Shown here in pieces: positions 1 through 5,721 of a stretch of 5,721 nt of DNA. Source of the stretch: Oscillospiraceae bacterium (lineage in GTDB: Bacteria; Bacillota_A; Clostridia; Oscillospirales; Oscillospiraceae). The stretch's first letter is position 1. Each line of letters opens with the position of its first letter. The position numbers and the translations under genes are program-made. The DNA lies in contig JAFQDR010000085.1 in the NCBI GenBank assembly GCA_017415945.1, forward strand, positions 1-5,721, written 5' to 3'. The notes beneath the pieces were generated by a model, which worked only from the letters and a program-made list of their open reading frames with translations, ran no database searches and had not been told where the DNA came from.

Positions 1-753
1 GAAAAAGGGATATGCCAAGGCAGAGGTGTAGGTCTTCCCCAGACTGCCTACGGACACGGCACACAGCAGCACGTTCAGCACCGTCACCCCCAACAGCCAC
101 GGGATGAGACTGTGAGATTTTTCGTCGGCTGCGGTATATTGGGTCAAAAATCCCATGGTCACCAAGGCCACGGACACCGCCTCCGCTGCAAGGGGGATGC
201 CCTTTGCAATGGCGGGCGCATCTTCCCATGTGACGGGTAAGAGGAAGGTGGGCTCCACATCCTCTAAGGAAAACAGCAGCACCGTGAGGATCACGAACAG
301 AAGCAGAGGACGAAACAGCTCCGCCGTCCGCGCCAGAGGCTTGATATGCCCAAAAGCGGCAATTGTGCAGGCAATGGCTGTGAGCACCATGAAGAAGGGA
401 GGCGTGGCTGTGGGATAAATGGTGGCGATGAATCGATCAGCGCCGCTGCGCAATAAAAAGCCGCTGTGGAAAACCAACCACGCCGACCACAAAAGCAGCA
501 GGAGTTTTCCACCGAAACTACCCAAAATACGGGGCAAAACCCGGGAAAATCCCTGTCCTTGTGGAAAACCCTTCAGCAGCAGAGTGAGCATGGCTGTCAA
601 AAGCAGGGCAGGCAGCAGAGAACAAGCGGCGCTGACCCATGCGGCAGACCCTGCACGGGAAGCAACGCTTGCGGGCAGCAGCCGCAGAAAGGGACTGAGC
701 ATAGCCACGAAGCACAGGATTCGCAGCTGTCGGAACGATATGCCGTTCTTCAC
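1..753 (-). CDS. GerAB-family spore germination permease subunit (3' end outside window)
   Basis: The gene starts at a GTG (753-751) and stays open for 251 codons to the left edge, so roughly the last 110 residues of a usual ~365-aa GerAB protein are missing. The product is very hydrophobic. I estimate membrane segments near residues 8-28, 38-61, 82-100, 117-135, 147-163, 183-203 and 216-235. An ARTAELF motif at 141-147 precedes a membrane helix and a ThrTyr...TyrPro stretch lies near 240-249; both are typical of GerAB, an APC-superfamily-like membrane subunit of germinant receptors in the spore inner membrane. The start is set by an AAGGAGG box seven bases upstream. The start overlaps the gerAC-type stop as GTGA, which indicates translational coupling. 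Family assignment is firm. The germinant and the subtype (GerA, GerB, GerK) cannot be told. Confidence 0.88.
   Translation of the reverse strand, partial: MKNGISFRQLRILCFVAMLSPFLRLLPASVASRAGSAAWVSAACSLLPALLLTAMLTLLLKGFPQGQGFSRVLPRILGSFGGKLLLLLWSAWLVFHSGFLLRSGADRFIATIYPTATPPFFMVLTAIACTIAAFGHIKPLARTAELFRPLLLFVILTVLLFSLEDVEPTFLLPVTWEDAPAIAKGIPLAAEAVSVALVTMGFLTQYTAADEKSHSLIPWLLGVTVLNVLLCAVSVGSLGKTYTSALAYPFF
465..569 (-). repeat. Pair of identical 10-mers GTTTTCCACA (465-474 and 560-569)
   Basis: Two exact copies on the minus strand, 95 bp apart, lie inside the GerAB-type gene. Residues 2-10 (TTTTCCACA) differ at one base from the DnaA box TTATCCACA. One copy starts at codon position 1, the other at codon position 2, so the identity does not come from a repeated peptide. 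A 9/10 match on the opposite strand lies at 504-513. Function is unproven. Confidence 0.4.
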
Positions 754-1901
754 GATGGTACCTCCTTGGTACGGGATTCATTTTCCTTGTGGTGGACGGA
801 GCATTGCACATGGGCAGACATGGACAGGGTGTCAAGCTGCTGTGTCCATGGAATCGGTGCGCGGGTCATTTCCTTGGGATAGGCGATGGCAATGCGGGCC
901 CCCAATCCCAAAAAGTCGCATTTGGTGCTGCGCATGGCCAGAAACAGCTCATTCATCCATTGGCTTACGTTATCCGACACCGCAGCTTCCAATCGCTGCC
1001 TGTCAACAGGATGTTTCTGCTCCGTTTCTATGGGCTCCGCTTCCAATTGCAGGGAAGACTGCAGCTGAGTCATGGTGCCCGCCTGTCCAAAGGTAGGGGT
1101 CAAGCTGCTTTTGCATTGGGTAAACCGCAGGCTTACGGGCTGTCCGTCCACGGTGATGGTCACCCCGCCTGTGCCAAGCTCCCCAATGAGGAGATTTACG
1201 GCACGGGAGGCATCGGCAGAGAGAAAGGCGGTGAGAGTGCCGTAGTCAATGACCCCATAGCCCGCCGCAATGGGGGTCACTTCCTCATCCTCCGCAGAGG
1301 GGTTGGTGTCTTTTGTCTTGTTCATGGTTAGAGCGCAGGCCAAGGCACTGCCGTATTCCGCGGAAAAGGAGCCGATGTCCCCGCAGGTAAAGGGGAAGCC
1401 CATGCCCTGTCGGTCACAGTCACGGATGACCGCCTCCAATACATCGTGTATCCCTTCCTTTTTGCCGCCTGCCTCCATGACAGCATCCTTGGCCTTGCCG
1501 CCCTTTACGATGAACAGGGGAATGTCCGACCGCAGCTGCTCGGAGCTTTCCAAATACTGCATCACATCTCCCAGCCCCTGCCGTGCGTAGTCCTCGCCAA
1601 CCAGTACATAACGGGTGTGGGCAAAGTACAGCTCGAATTTTTCGCTGTAATTTTGCAGCTTCCCCAAGCAATCGGAAATGTTCTTCCCCGTACAGGACAG
1701 ACGGATGAGGCTTTGTCCCTCCTCACCCTCCTCACCGCCGCAGATACTCAGCTCCAAGCCTTCCTCGTGGGCATCGAAGCCAATGGCGTGAATCAGCTTC
1801 AGCTGTTCAATGGGACGATAGTTGGAAAACAAGCTGCTTTTTGCACAGCCTGTGGAAAACAATAGGCAGATCGGCATGAGGAACAGGAAAAATCGTTTCA
1901 T
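750..1901 (-). CDS. Ger(x)C-family spore germination lipoprotein (GerAC-like)
   Basis: A 383-aa protein, a normal length for GerAC. The start at 1901 follows an AAGAGG box with a 6-nt spacer and opens directly into a lipoprotein signal: Lys2-Arg3, a hydrophobic core, then the lipobox STGC with Cys19 as the expected lipidation site. Longer in-frame starts would run into the divergent promoter and delete this logic. After the Cys come an N-terminal region with IGFD (about 40-43), the GerAC-like stretch FAHTRYVLVGE near 94-104, GYGVIDYG...LLIG around 215-240, and the C-terminal signature DFLGLG at 329-334 followed by a Trp-containing segment. GerAC subunits are anchored on the outer face of the spore inner membrane and work with A and B subunits in nutrient sensing. 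It is the first gene of its transcription unit and overlaps the GerAB-type gene by 4 nt. A tandem 9-bp repeat encodes GluGlu-Gly-GluGlu near residues 57-61. Confidence 0.92.
   Translation of the reverse strand: MKRFFLFLMPICLLFSTGCAKSSLFSNYRPIEQLKLIHAIGFDAHEEGLELSICGGEEGEEGQSLIRLSCTGKNISDCLGKLQNYSEKFELYFAHTRYVLVGEDYARQGLGDVMQYLESSEQLRSDIPLFIVKGGKAKDAVMEAGGKKEGIHDVLEAVIRDCDRQGMGFPFTCGDIGSFSAEYGSALACALTMNKTKDTNPSAEDEEVTPIAAGYGVIDYGTLTAFLSADASRAVNLLIGELGTGGVTITVDGQPVSLRFTQCKSSLTPTFGQAGTMTQLQSSLQLEAEPIETEQKHPVDRQRLEAAVSDNVSQWMNELFLAMRSTKCDFLGLGARIAIAYPKEMTRAPIPWTQQLDTLSMSAHVQCSVHHKENESRTKEVPS
761..767 (-). promoter_or_regulatory. Ribosome binding site for the GerAB-type gene
   Basis: On the minus strand AAGGAGG lies inside the last codons of the GerAC-type gene, seven bases before the GTG at 753. 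It decides a GTG start that overlaps the preceding stop codon. This perfect box should compensate for the weaker initiation codon. Confidence 0.8.
1717..1734. repeat. Tandem duplication of the 9-mer CCCTCCTCA
   Basis: Two perfect head-to-tail copies lie inside the GerAC-type gene and encode a repeated Gly-Glu-Glu on the minus strand. Being 9 bp, the repeat keeps frame. It looks like replication slippage within an acidic surface stretch, and no function is inferred. Confidence 0.6.
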
Positions 1902-2011: not shown

Positions 2012-2836
2012 GTGAGAAAACCAAGCCGCTTTGAACGTAATATGCTGATGGAGGTCACCCAAGTGCGGGAGGACGGCATCACCATGCATGGAAATCTCTA
2101 CAAGGATTGTAATAATGTATATGGTATTGCCCACGGAGGCTATTTATATACCGTTGCCCACATTGCCGCACAGGTTTGTGGAGAACTTTGTCTGGGCGGT
2201 GGGTGGAATGTCCGCAGCGCGGAGTGCCTGTTTCTCCATCCCCTGCGCATTTATCCCTCTGTCATTGAAGCGGTGATAATCAGCAGAGAGCCCGACTACC
2301 CCATGGTTCGCGCGGAAGTGCGGGATTCACAGGGTGCTCTGTGCTTTGAGCTGAACGCCGTTCTGACTCCCGCAATTTCCCATAAGGAAGCAGTGGTGCA
2401 GATTCCCAAAATCCACACAGAAAATATGCCCCCCAAGGAGCCGAATGGGGAATTCCTTCTGCCCTGTGTATCTACCACCTTTGCCCATTGGATGAATATT
2501 TACACCACAGCCAGAGATGAGGCATCCATTGTGTACTCCGTTGATTTGTGTGAGCGAAACTGCGACGAGTACGGCTATGCCCTGCCTGCCGCCATGTTCA
2601 CCGCCGCGGACTGCGCTGTGGGAGGCTGCCTGTATTATGTGGACGGAAAGCGGCCCATTACCGTGTCTGCCAATATGCATTATCTGGCTCCCACTGCCCA
2701 AGGGCCTGTCCATGCGGTGCCACATTCTGTGCGAAAGGGAAAATTCCTGAACTTCTACAATGTGGAGCTGATAGACGGAGCGGGAAAAACCGTTGCGGTG
2801 GGGCAGTTTATCATCCGCGATATGGACAAGAAATAA
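2012..2836 (+). CDS. Double hotdog-fold protein 1 (PaaI-like thioesterase superfamily)
   Basis: A 274-aa soluble protein with no signal peptide or membrane segment. Two hotdog domains follow each other, about residues 10-120 and 165-272. The first has YGIAHGGYLYT with His41-Gly42-Gly43, the loop-helix signature of PaaI/4HBT thioesterases. The place of the PaaI catalytic acid, nine residues after the His, is His50. The second half has YGYALPAAMFTAAD: HGG has become Leu191-Pro192-Ala193, but the acid is kept as Asp200. The central strand motif KRPITVSANMHY is shared with its three neighbours. Members of this superfamily hydrolyse or bind acyl-CoA or acyl-carrier thioesters; the substrate here is not known. 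It is the first gene of the array, 15 nt before gene 2. Fold assignment is good. Enzymatic activity is inferred, and a non-catalytic acyl-binding role is possible, since its second half has the most decayed HGG motif of the four. Confidence 0.82.
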   Translation: MRKPSRFERNMLMEVTQVREDGITMHGNLYKDCNNVYGIAHGGYLYTVAHIAAQVCGELCLGGGWNVRSAECLFLHPLRIYPSVIEAVIISREPDYPMVRAEVRDSQGALCFELNAVLTPAISHKEAVVQIPKIHTENMPPKEPNGEFLLPCVSTTFAHWMNIYTTARDEASIVYSVDLCERNCDEYGYALPAAMFTAADCAVGGCLYYVDGKRPITVSANMHYLAPTAQGPVHAVPHSVRKGKFLNFYNVELIDGAGKTVAVGQFIIRDMDKK

Positions 2837-2851
2837 GAGAGGAGAAGGCAT

Positions 2852-3676
2852 ATGGAAATCAGAGATCCTTTGGCACAGAAGCTGGGCTTGGAGCTTTCGG
2901 AAGTACGAGATAATGGCTTGGTCACAATCACAAACGCACGTCCCGAGGTGCTGAATCCCTACGGGATGGCCCATGGGGGATATCTCCACGCATTGGGACA
3001 GCTGTCCGCTGTGCTTTGTGCGCAGCAAAACTATGGGGGCAGCTGGGAAGTGACCGAGACCTCCACACAATATCTCCGATCCCTGCGGAAATTCCCCGCA
3101 AAGACCGTGATCCAATTGGTGAATGGGGATGAGGCGGCACCTGTCTGCCGTGGGGAAGTGTTCGACGGAGCGGGGGCCCTGTGCATTACCCAGATCATCG
3201 GACTGAAGCGGGCGGCGGAATATGTGCAGGCACCCCTTGTGCACAGCCCCGTCATTACCTCTGCCAATCCCATGCCCAAGGATTTGGATGCGGAGCCTCC
3301 CTTCCCCTGCTTGGCAACCTCCTTCTCTCGTTATCTGAACTGTTATTCCATCCGTAAGGAAGCTACGGGGCTGGTGTACGCACTGGATCTGAACGAAAAC
3401 AACACCGATGCCCATGGCTTTGCCCATACCGCCGCTATGTTCACCGTAGCGGACTCCGCGGCCTGCGGCTCCATGGTGCGTATCGAACGCAAGACCCCCG
3501 TCACCGTGTCCGCATCCATTCGCTATGTGACCAAGGCAGCGGCAAGCCTTGTGGAGGCAAGACCCCGCCTGACCCGCAGAGGACGTGTGCTGAATTTCTA
3601 CGATGTGGATATTGTGGATGGGAACGGGACCCTTGCGGCGGTTGCCCAGTTTGTGGTTCAGAGTCTGGATCAATAA
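2852..3676 (+). CDS. Double hotdog-fold protein 2 (PaaI-like thioesterase superfamily)
   Basis: A 274-aa cytosolic protein starting at ATG 2852 after GGAG with a 7-nt spacer. The first domain carries NPYGMAHGGYLHALGQ with His41-Gly42-Gly43; Gln50 stands where PaaI has its Asp. The second carries GFAHTAAMFTVADSAA: His192 remains, the two Gly are Thr193-Ala194, and Asp201 is kept. The motif KTPVTVSASIRY and the terminal strand DVDIVDGNG align with the other three proteins. Identical length to protein 1, HGG at the same residue number and a shared linker (ProCys...Thr.Phe...Asn.Tyr) make these two the closest-looking pair. Co-transcription with gene 1 is likely because the gap is only 15 nt. It is probably a thioester hydrolase or acyl binder, and may pair with a neighbour as a hetero-oligomer; both points are inference. 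Confidence 0.82.
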   Translation: MEIRDPLAQKLGLELSEVRDNGLVTITNARPEVLNPYGMAHGGYLHALGQLSAVLCAQQNYGGSWEVTETSTQYLRSLRKFPAKTVIQLVNGDEAAPVCRGEVFDGAGALCITQIIGLKRAAEYVQAPLVHSPVITSANPMPKDLDAEPPFPCLATSFSRYLNCYSIRKEATGLVYALDLNENNTDAHGFAHTAAMFTVADSAACGSMVRIERKTPVTVSASIRYVTKAAASLVEARPRLTRRGRVLNFYDVDIVDGNGTLAAVAQFVVQSLDQ

Positions 3677-3773
3677 ATTGTTAAAAAAAAGACTTGTACA
3701 AAAACCATTGCGATATGCAAGGATTTATGAGACAATATACAGTGATAATAAAGTAACAAATGAGGGAATGACT
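3677..3773 (+). other. A/T-rich gap between hotdog genes 2 and 3
   Basis: This 97-nt spacer contrasts with gaps of 15 and 5 nt elsewhere in the array. It holds an A8 run (3683-3690), the 8-bp palindrome TTGTACAA (3694-3701) and a short dyad TTGC-GATAT-GCAA (3708-3720). I see no hairpin plus U-run terminator and no convincing -35/-10 pair: TTGCGA at 3708 and CAATAT at 3733 are 19 bp apart and weak. The gap may hold an internal promoter or a processing site, or mark the join of two duplicated gene pairs. Confidence 0.4.
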
Positions 3774-4655
3774 ATGAACTACGAAAATAAAGAGGCATTG
3801 GCAAAAATCATCGAGTTTGAGGTGCTGGAGGTCCGTGAAAACGGTTTGCTGACCCGTGCGGTATCCAAGAAGGAATTCTGCAACGCTTACGGCTTTGCTC
3901 ACGGCGGCTTCACCTATACCGTGGGGCATCTGGCAGCTATTGCATCCGCACAGCTGTGTCTGGATCGCAAGACTGTTGTCACCGATGCCAGCTGTGAATA
4001 CCTCACCAGCCTGAACGGTGCTTGGGCTTATGCGGAAACCGAGCTGCTCCGTGCAGGCAACAGCCGTCTGGAATATCGTGTTTCCGTGATGGACGAAAAG
4101 AACAGAGTCTGCTTCAAGCAGGTCATCAGTCTGAAGGAAGTGGATCACCCCGAGGTCACCGTCAGCGGCAAGGAGCCCACCCTGTTTATGAGCAAGGATG
4201 GGGATCCCGTGGACGAGGTCACCGGCCTGTCCTATCCCAGACAGTCCCCCGCATTCGCAACCGTCTGCCACTGCTTCATGAGCGGCAGAGGTGCAGCAGG
4301 TATGAAGTATTCCGTTGACCTGCTGGACGATGTATACGATGTGTACGGCACCGCACACGGCGGCGCAATCTATACCTGCTGCGATGCCTGTGCCGGCGGC
4401 AGCATGGCCATGCTGCTGGAAAAGCGTCCCGTTACCGTTTCCAGCTCCATTCACTTCCTCCGTCCCGCAACGGAAGGCCCCGTGACCGTAGAAGCAAAGC
4501 TGGTGCGCAACGGCAAGCAGCTGGTGTTCTACGATCTGGATATTACCGACGGCAACGGCGAACTGATCGCGGTTGCGCTGTTCACCATGCAGGGTGTGGA
4601 ATACAAGGCAAACAATCTGCCTCAGGGATACCAGAACAAAGCTTTTAAGGAGTGA
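3774..4655 (+). CDS. Double hotdog-fold protein 3 (PaaI-like thioesterase, HGG in both halves)
   Basis: A 293-aa soluble protein. The ATG at 3774 is preferred because GAGGG (3762-3766) lies seven bases upstream; the ATG at 3768 would be too close and the far 5' in-frame ATG lies inside gene 2. The first domain has AYGFAHGGFTYTVGH with His43-Gly44-Gly45 and His52 at the acid position. The second has YGTAHGGAIYTCCDACAGG with His195-Gly196-Gly197 and Asp204, the full HGG plus Asp signature of PaaI-type thioesterases. It is therefore the paralogue nearest to a canonical enzyme and the best candidate for measurable activity. KRPVTVSSSIHF and YDLDITDGNGE follow. A roughly 20-residue tail extends beyond the second domain. 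Leucine codons are almost all CTG and glycine mostly GGC, more uniform than in gene 1, which may reflect higher expression. The stop is five bases from the gene 4 start, so the two are surely co-translated. Confidence 0.85.
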   Translation: MNYENKEALAKIIEFEVLEVRENGLLTRAVSKKEFCNAYGFAHGGFTYTVGHLAAIASAQLCLDRKTVVTDASCEYLTSLNGAWAYAETELLRAGNSRLEYRVSVMDEKNRVCFKQVISLKEVDHPEVTVSGKEPTLFMSKDGDPVDEVTGLSYPRQSPAFATVCHCFMSGRGAAGMKYSVDLLDDVYDVYGTAHGGAIYTCCDACAGGSMAMLLEKRPVTVSSSIHFLRPATEGPVTVEAKLVRNGKQLVFYDLDITDGNGELIAVALFTMQGVEYKANNLPQGYQNKAFKE

Positions 4656-4660
4656 CAATT

Positions 4661-5542
4661 ATGCAGGAATTCATCGATGAACAGCTTCCCATCAACGACT
4701 TATTTACGGAGAACTTGAATCTGGTTCTGCAGAGCTACACCAAGAGAAGTGTGACTGTGCGCTGCGACAGCAAGGATGTATTTCTCAACCCCTACGGCTT
4801 TGCCCACGGTGGCTTCCTGTATACCATCGGTCACATTGCAGCCCGCAACATGGCGCTGGTATGTCTGGGGCGCCATATGCAGGTGGTGCAGTCTACCTGC
4901 CAGTATCTGGGTATGGTGCACAGCGCCCCCATTACCGCAGAGGCAAAGCTTATGAGCGTCTTCCATGAGGCAGTGGTTTGTGAGGCCAAGGTCTTTGACG
5001 GTAAGGGAGATCTGTGCTTCCTGCAGACCTTGATTTTGCAGGATACCACTCAGGACGGTGTAGAGCTGGTTTACCCCAAGAAATATAAAGGGAAAACAAC
5101 CTCCAATTTTATGAATACCGGCATCATGGCAAAGGGCATGAAGCGTACCTTTGACGATGTATGTCATATCGGAGCGCCCTATGCAGACAAAAAGGGCATC
5201 CATGTGCAGACCGACCTGTACAGCGACACCAGCTCCGATCGCGGCTATGTCCATCAGGGCGTGCTGTTCACCATGTGCGACAACTGCGTTGCTGCCTGCG
5301 TGGGGATGCTGCAGAAAAAGCGTCCCGTTACGGTGACCGCTTCCATTCACTATCTGCTTCCCGCAGTCAAGGGCCCCATTACCGCAACGGGCAGCCTCCT
5401 GCGTGCGGGCAACAAGCTGGCATACTACGACATTATCGTCAGAGACGGTACGGGCAGAAAGTGCTGCAAGGCCCAGTTTATTATGAATTGCACCGACTGG
5501 CCTCCCCAGATCGCCGCTATGCTCAAGAAGCAGGGCTTCTAA
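4661..5542 (+). CDS. Double hotdog-fold protein 4 (PaaI-like thioesterase superfamily)
   Basis: A 293-aa soluble protein, the same length as protein 3. ATG 4661 follows AAGGAG (4647-4652) with an 8-nt spacer; a GTG at 4652 overlaps that box and is unlikely to be used. The first domain has NPYGFAHGGFLYTIGH with His49-Gly50-Gly51 and His58 in the acid position. The second has GYVHQGVLFTMCDNC: His198-Gln199-Gly200 with Asp207 kept. KRPVTVTASIHY and YYDIIVRDGTG match the neighbours. The interdomain segment (about residues 128-180) is longer and lysine-rich compared with the other three, and the C-terminal tail ends in a short basic helix-like stretch. It is the last gene of the array, followed by a hairpin. 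It probably binds or hydrolyses an acyl thioester. The kept His and Asp make activity plausible, but the middle Gly of HGG is lost. Confidence 0.83.
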   Translation: MQEFIDEQLPINDLFTENLNLVLQSYTKRSVTVRCDSKDVFLNPYGFAHGGFLYTIGHIAARNMALVCLGRHMQVVQSTCQYLGMVHSAPITAEAKLMSVFHEAVVCEAKVFDGKGDLCFLQTLILQDTTQDGVELVYPKKYKGKTTSNFMNTGIMAKGMKRTFDDVCHIGAPYADKKGIHVQTDLYSDTSSDRGYVHQGVLFTMCDNCVAACVGMLQKKRPVTVTASIHYLLPAVKGPITATGSLLRAGNKLAYYDIIVRDGTGRKCCKAQFIMNCTDWPPQIAAMLKKQGF

Positions 5543-5557
5543 TCCAACATATCTATC

Positions 5558-5583
5558 AAAGGGATGACGAAAGTCATCCCTTT
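5558..5583 (+). terminator. Hairpin terminator after the hotdog array
   Basis: An 11-bp perfect stem (AAAGGGATGAC with GTCATCCCTTT) closes on a GAAA tetraloop, 15 nt after the last stop codon. The stem is bordered by A/T on both sides, but only three T lie at its 3' edge, within the stem, and no further U-run follows. Termination may therefore be partial, or the hairpin may mainly protect the mRNA 3' end. Confidence 0.55.
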
Positions 5584-5650: not shown

Positions 5651-5721
5651 ATGGAACGATGGAGAAAGAACGGTCGTAACGACGCATATGTTATCGATGT
5701 AGATACGCTTGTTCCCGAAGA
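5651..5721 (+). CDS. 5' end of a probable IS1182-type transposase (cut by right edge)
   Basis: ATG 5651 follows AGGGGG (5638-5643) with a 7-nt spacer and the frame stays open for 23 codons to the edge. The first residues are basic (MERWRKNGRN) and then read DAYVIDVDTLVPE. The ValAsp-Thr-Leu-Val-Pro-Glu stretch near the N-terminus resembles the Asp-Ser-Leu-Val-Pro-x-Asp-His start of IS1182-family DDE transposases, as I recall the family. Twenty-three residues are too few for a firm call. The promoter and dyad layout before it supports a transposase. An unrelated small gene remains possible. No element ends can be identified here. Confidence 0.45.
   Translation, partial: MERWRKNGRNDAYVIDVDTLVPE

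What the first reader, a model, noticed from the sequence alone, without database searches (positions are those of the whole stretch)
2012..5542. Tandem array of four paralogous double-hotdog proteins
Four adjacent genes, eight hotdog domains, share AHGG in the first half and K-x-P-[IV]-T-V-[ST] in the second. Lengths fall into two pairs (274/274 and 293/293), and the 97-nt gap lies exactly between the pairs, which suggests duplication of a gene followed by duplication or divergence of a pair. No partner genes such as CoA ligases, acyl carriers or dehydrogenases are in the window, so a standard catabolic pathway is not evident. They may form a hetero-oligomer or a set of enzymes for different acyl thioesters. 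I know of no described system with this layout.
Basis: partly seen in the sequence, partly recalled or inferred. Interest (0 to 1): 0.7.

Follow-up and report, generated by a model that had tools for sequence, protein, structure and literature searches.

The report
Four tandem fused-hotdog thioesterase genes
Four neighbouring genes, probably from a gut spore-forming bacterium, encode related two-domain enzymes that each seem to share one active site between their two halves and probably split different CoA-linked acids; the layout is real and older than this one assembly, but the enzyme type is a known one and no activity has been measured.

Summary
Four adjacent + strand genes (274, 274, 293, 293 aa) each encode two hotdog domains; models of g3 and g1 are confident double hotdogs. 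The halves are complementary: the N-half keeps Asn and His-Gly-Gly but lacks the catalytic acid; the C-half keeps Asp and Thr. That composite PaaI-type site is complete in 136 of 139 relatives, the reverse site in 0 of 139; 27 of 27 single-domain relatives examined carry all these residues on one chain. Each protein is most likely a one-site acyl/aryl-CoA thioesterase.

The whole array was read only in the window, but all four groups have orthologues and a related MAG keeps g3-g4 plus a 39-codon remnant of a g1/g2-type gene at the expected place. g1 and g2 group together; copying of a whole pair is not supported. The family is narrow (3 of 400 family genomes) and lies divergently beside gerAC-gerAB germination genes at 4 of 5 loci read. 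Substrates, assembly and any germination link are unknown. New variant of a known kind.

The parts
2012..2836 (+). g1, double-hotdog protein, 274 aa (GTG start). Composite site: Asn35 (2114-2116) and His41-Gly42-Gly43 (2132-2140) in the N-half; Asp200 (2609-2611) and Thr217 (2660-2662) in the C-half; C-half HGG replaced by Leu-Pro-Ala
2852..3676 (+). g2, double-hotdog protein, 274 aa, grouped with g1. N-half Asn35 (2954-2956) and HGG 41-43 (2972-2980); C-half Asp201 (3452-3454) and Thr218 (3503-3505)
3677..3773 (+). 97-nt gap between the pairs; shares a 10-nt block (E 0.03-0.05, weak) with the gap between the hotdog remnant and g3 in L001. A promoter here is not above chance by consensus
3774..4655 (+). 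g3, double-hotdog protein, 293 aa. N-half Asn37 (3882-3884) and HGG 43-45 (3900-3908); C-half Asp204 (4383-4385) and Thr221 (4434-4436); the only one of the four that keeps a C-half HGG
4661..5542 (+). g4, double-hotdog protein, 293 aa (alternative GTG start 4652). N-half Asn43 (4787-4789) and HGG 49-51 (4805-4813); C-half Asp207 (5279-5281) and Thr224 (5330-5332)
5558..5583 (+). hairpin after g4 (11 pairs, loop GAAA); a similar hairpin with a T-run follows g4 in L001. Read by eye; not in the terminator scan's list
750..1901 (-). gerAC-like spore-germination gene, divergent from g1 (probable start ATG at 1901, by eye; ORF open to 2024)
1..753 (-). gerAB-like spore-germination permease gene, cut by the window edge

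Best explanation
Each of the four genes encodes a fused (double) hotdog thioesterase of the PaaI/THEM2 kind that folds like an internal dimer with one working active site. The N-half supplies the oxyanion end (Asn and the Gly of HGG at the start of its helix); the C-half supplies the attacking or water-activating Asp and the Thr. The mirror site has decayed. One ancestral fusion was followed by tandem duplications (lineages g3, g4 and g1/g2; g1 and g2 then parted by a further duplication), each copy being kept with its own pocket, most likely to hydrolyse different small acyl- or aryl-CoA esters and free CoA. Shown by sequence: architecture, complementary residue loss, conservation, gene order in the window, remnant in a relative. 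Inferred: residue roles (by homology), thioesterase activity, different substrates.
Against: No activity, substrate or ligand evidence. Only g3 and g1 were folded, and only g3 was compared with solved structures. Three of 139 relatives break the site: P0005 (Gly to Asp), P0133 and P0140 (divergent stretches, perhaps frameshifted). 'Different substrates' rests only on separate conservation of four lineages; only 2 positions are at least 90% fixed in every group yet differ between groups, which is weak support. Hotdog folds also serve dehydratases and other functions.
Confidence: 0.62

Rival explanations
1. The four proteins form one hetero-oligomer (for example pairs of g1 with g2 and g3 with g4) in which some members are structural or regulatory and only some catalyse.
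For: Tight gene spacing (15 and 5 nt); hotdog proteins form dimers, double hotdogs or higher oligomers (PMC2698920, passages read); g1 with g2, and g3 with g4, often share a contig length (8 and 5 of 17 shared lengths).
Against: All four groups keep the full composite site (136 of 139), so no member looks catalytically dead. A relative (L001) has g3-g4 without complete g1/g2 at that place, and no other match in its genome, though that genome is small (1.3 Mb held) and may be incomplete; so a complex of all four does not look obligatory. Not tested by modelling.
Confidence: 0.2
2. The hotdog array works together with the divergent germination genes, for example by making or removing an acyl metabolite sensed or released during spore germination.
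For: Divergent adjacency to gerAC-gerAB at 4 of 5 loci read (window, L001, L038, L039; not L040); in the L001-L039 comparison only hotdog and ger genes are shared; all 4 genus genomes have Spo0A and GerAC matches.
Against: The loci share ancestry, so adjacency may just be inherited. The second hotdog copy of G003 (L040) has no ger gene beside it. No sporulation sigma-factor pattern in 5 upstream stretches. L001 and L038 also share two other genes (gyrA and RNase H by eye) some kilobases away.
Confidence: 0.12
3. The proteins are not thioesterases but hotdog dehydratases/hydratases or acyl-CoA binding proteins.
Against: Sequence families and top structural matches are thioesterases; the conserved residues are those named for PaaI/THEM2 thioesterases rather than the Asp-His pair of hydratase 2 as described in PMC2698920 (passages read).
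Confidence: 0.08
4. Decaying or selfish tandem duplication without function, or an assembly artefact.
For: The family is lineage-restricted (3 of 400 family genomes), L001 has lost most of g1/g2, and the complete four-gene array was read only in the window.
Against: 44, 30, 36 and 29 members per group with conserved catalytic residues, from many different contigs.
Confidence: 0.03

Closest known systems
PaaI / THEM2-type hotdog thioesterases (4HBT, TIGR00369; e.g. E. coli PaaI, S. aureus PaaI, S. pneumoniae SP_1851, human THEM2)
   Same: Residue pattern Asn-x6-Gly-x7-acid and Thr/Ser on the following strand; site made across two hotdog domains; best sequence matches among solved structures
   Different: Those are single-domain proteins that assemble as dimers or tetramers with two equal sites per dimer; here two domains are fused and one site is lost. 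Scores 38-63 bits against the PaaD/PaaI equivalog cut-off of 118.9
Double-hotdog thioesterases: TesB (1c8u, 4r9z), 3bbj, 3cjy, ACOT7/ACOT12
   Different: 11-16% identity; TesB's triad is Asp204-Thr228-Gln278; here Asn and HGG with Asp and Thr of PaaI type; no four-gene tandem array is mentioned in the passages I read
Eukaryotic (R)-hydratase 2 double hotdogs
   Same: Fused pair that kept one of two catalytic sites (PMC2698920, passages read)
   Different: Dehydration/hydration chemistry, different residues, catalytic residues in one half only

Membership tests
4HBT hotdog superfamily (PF03061) | Score above the curated Pfam cut-off | tested here: met
   34.0, 35.0, 92.0, 73.4 bits against 20.6
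4HBT hotdog superfamily (PF03061) | Hotdog fold: curved sheet round a long helix, once per domain | tested here: met
   g3 and g1 models, two beta-beta-helix-beta4 units each; g2 and g4 not folded
TIGR00369 hotdog-fold thioesterase | Score above the curated cut-off of 36.6 bits | tested here: inconclusive
   g2 56.7, g3 69.5, g4 62.5 above; g1 35.9 just below
PaaI equivalog (TIGR02286, hydroxyphenylacetyl-CoA thioesterase) | Score above the equivalog cut-off of 118.9 bits | tested here: not met
   38.2, 40.9, 62.8, 42.8 bits: not PaaI proper
PaaI/THEM2-type thioesterase mechanism | Asn, Gly of HGG, acid and Ser/Thr in one composite site | tested here: met
   residues present in 136 of 139, equivalence by alignment; geometry not measured
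PaaI/THEM2-type thioesterase mechanism | Hydrolyses acyl- or aryl-CoA | not testable with these tools
   needs a purified-protein assay
TesB / acyl-CoA thioesterase II | N-terminal acyl-CoA thioesterase domain model (PF13622) above its cut-off of 24.3 bits | tested here: inconclusive
   g1 39.6, g3 52.6, g4 31.6 above; g2 21.9 below. In all four the best stretch lies in the C-half, although the model describes an N-terminal domain
TesB / acyl-CoA thioesterase II | C-terminal acyl-CoA thioesterase domain model (PF20789) above its cut-off | tested here: not met
   only g3 hits at E up to 1, 14.1 bits against 24.1
TesB / acyl-CoA thioesterase II | Double-hotdog fold | tested here: met
Hydratase 2 / MaoC dehydratase | Asp-His pair in an overhanging segment | not tested
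   no dehydratase family among the Pfam hits at E up to 1; the segment itself was not examined

The most novel reading that the evidence does not exclude
A lineage of gut spore-formers has built a four-member set of one-site fused hotdog thioesterases, lastingly paired with divergent germinant-receptor genes, that tunes a small acyl-CoA-derived pool or signal used in spore entry or exit: a metabolic arm of germination not known before.
Probability: 0.1. Interest if true: 0.68.

Novelty: new variant of a known kind. Interest (0 to 1): 0.4.

Why it matters
It gives a clean natural case of complementary decay after domain fusion: four paralogous lineages keep the same one of two hotdog active sites, which makes the division of labour between halves directly testable by point mutation. 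A lineage-specific expansion of such enzymes also hints at an unrecognised set of CoA esters in uncultured Oscillospiraceae.

Tried and rejected
Whole-pair duplication (g1~g3, g2~g4): not supported by the tree. Sporulation promoters: four sigma-factor patterns in 5 upstream stretches, both strands, gave no match; sigma-70-like scores were reached by shuffles with P 0.73, 0.96, 0.29, 0.14 and 0.03, so promoter type is left open. RNA families: none in the window at gathering scores. Viral contigs: 10 stretches matched a pattern, none a relative. Plasmids: no match for the 182 bases at the window's end. The one scan of genome contigs (301 pattern stretches) gave a single relative, L001. Pseudoenzyme idea for g1, g2 and g4 (their C-half HGG is gone): rejected because the other site is complete.

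Literature: seven searches listed 3, 8, 4, 1, 10 (of 28), 3 and 2 papers; none of those listed describes, by title or the start of its abstract, a tandem array of double-hotdog thioesterases or a link of such genes to ger operons. Most subscription papers are not held. I read passages, not whole texts, of three papers (PMC13114782, PMC2698920, PMC7190597).

One search scored only the 7998 candidates sharing most words, so group sizes are lower bounds. Rows dropped: 8 homologues under 255 aa were left out of the 139; the tree used 45 proteins, thinned at 72% identity, without P0140; P0140, P0133 and the two fifth-clade proteins were left out of the divergence count. The 27 single-domain controls are the best-scoring single-domain loci, not a random sample. 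'Groups' are by highest identity to g1-g4, so the two fifth-clade proteins fall in group 3 and apart.
Full report

THE ACTIVE SITE. In PaaI-type thioesterases the named active-site residues are Gly53/Asp61 (2FS2, E. coli PaaI), Gly65/Glu73 (1Q4U, Arthrobacter) and Asn50, Gly57, Asp65, Ser83 (3F5O, THEM2) (PMC13114782 Table 4, passages read). In S. aureus PaaI the interface table shows Gly40 and His38 of one subunit touching Glu47 and Thr48 of its partner (same call), so a site is built from two domains. Mapping by alignment: g3 Asn37, Gly44, His52 and Val69 of the N-half correspond to Asp189, Gly196, Asp204 and Thr221 of the C-half. That is, the N-half keeps Asn and HGG but has His for the acid and Val for Ser/Thr; the C-half keeps Asp and Thr but has mostly lost Asn and, in g1, g2 and g4, HGG.

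I counted this on 139 proteins: 133 of at least 255 aa (the four window proteins and 129 found) plus 6 from related loci; 8 shorter hits were dropped. N-half Asn 138, His 138, Gly 137; the N-half acid position is never Asp or Glu (His 115, Gln 18, others 6). C-half Asp 138, Thr 139; the C-half Asn position is Asn in only 18, and C-half Gly196 is Gly in only 32, all of group 3. The composite site is complete in 136 of 139 and the reverse site in 0 of 139. The exceptions are P0005, P0133 and P0140. As a control, the single-domain relatives in 27 of 27 loci (best-scoring such loci) carry Asn, His, Gly, Asp and Thr on one chain. The simplest reading is one working site per fused protein, and no dead paralogue among the four. 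This division of labour has precedent: ACOT7 uses Asn24 and Asp213 (by their numbers, one in each domain), and hydratase 2 kept one of two sites (PMC2698920, passages read).

HISTORY. N-halves match N-halves of the paralogues (local scores 146-192) and C-halves C-halves (159-286) far better than the two halves of one protein match each other (26-89), so one fusion preceded the array. In a 45-protein tree the g1 and g2 groups form one clade (100/99; g2 alone 100/99, g1 alone 96/90); g4 is its own clade (100/100); g3-like proteins lie on the other side of a 97/96 branch. The tree is unrooted, so the order of g3, g4 and g1/g2 is open, but copying of a whole pair is not supported.

IS THE ARRAY REAL ELSEWHERE? 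The complete four-gene order was read directly only in the window. The groups have 44, 30, 36 and 29 members. Among 137 hits, 17 contig lengths are shared by hits of different groups, including one 12,921-nt length with g1, g2 and g3, eight with g1 and g2 (that one included) and five with g3 and g4; this infers, but does not prove, common contigs. Read directly, the MAG contig L001 (Oscillospiraceae, water deer) has gerAB, gerAC (minus), then g3 (70%) and g4 (79%) orthologues, then gerAA (minus). Between gerAC and g3 lies a 39-codon remnant ending in a stop, 49% identical to the end of a g1-group protein (P0079; E 6.5e-9 in a 624-nt search) and 47% to a g2-group one (P0119), where g1/g2 sit in the window. 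So a longer array is probably older than the split of these species, and L001 lost most of it.

RANGE. This is a narrow, lineage-specific expansion. The window's own genome is not held, so its host is inferred from these relatives.

NEIGHBOURS. Hotdog genes lie divergently next to gerAC-gerAB in the window, L001, L038 (G004) and L039 (G003); a fifth-clade copy in L040 (G003) does not. L001 and L039 share nothing else in the stretches compared at E 1e-8; L001 and L038 also share two genes (gyrA and RNase H, named by eye) in another arrangement. All four genus genomes have Spo0A and GerAC matches; GerA was found in 2 of 4, and in G004 it is not beside the hotdogs. G002 has gerAC-gerAB on a contig that begins inside gerAC, so its missing hotdog genes may lie off the assembly. 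Of 18 proteins scanned (one of them the window's gerAB, one from G002), 17 had a Pfam hit at 1e-5 and none is a CoA ligase or acyl carrier; the nearest to acyl or redox enzymes are an acetyltransferase-type protein in L001 and an FAD-dependent protein in L038, each some kilobases off. The 18th was a reading frame opposite a better one. Not every neighbour was scanned. Promoter scans are uninformative.

VERDICT. A real, apparently maintained four-gene set of one-site fused hotdog thioesterases of PaaI type, new to me as an arrangement and as a family, ordinary in enzyme kind. Substrates, assembly and any link to germination are open. Interest 0.4.

Noticed in passing
L001 7021-7137 (+): A 39-codon remnant of the 3' end of a g1/g2-type hotdog gene between gerAC and g3: a gene-loss scar.
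   Followed up: yes
window 5651-5721 (+): A short reading frame (MERWRKNGRNDAYVIDVDTLVPE, read by eye) follows g4 and is cut by the window edge; perhaps a transposase (by eye). In L001 gerAA lies at the corresponding place. No plasmid match.
   Followed up: partly
L001 4629-10569: The germination genes are split: gerAA and gerAC-gerAB are on one strand with the hotdog pair between them on the other strand.
   Followed up: partly
L038 9504-10424 and L040 9402-10349: A fifth, fast-evolving double-hotdog clade (100/100, branch 1.16) with Cys at the N-half acid position in both.
   Followed up: partly
window 3774-4655 (g3 group, C-half): Only group 3 keeps a C-half HGG (Gly196 in 32 of 34), opposite an invariant His52 in the N-half (34 of 34); the mirror site might still bind something.
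   Followed up: no
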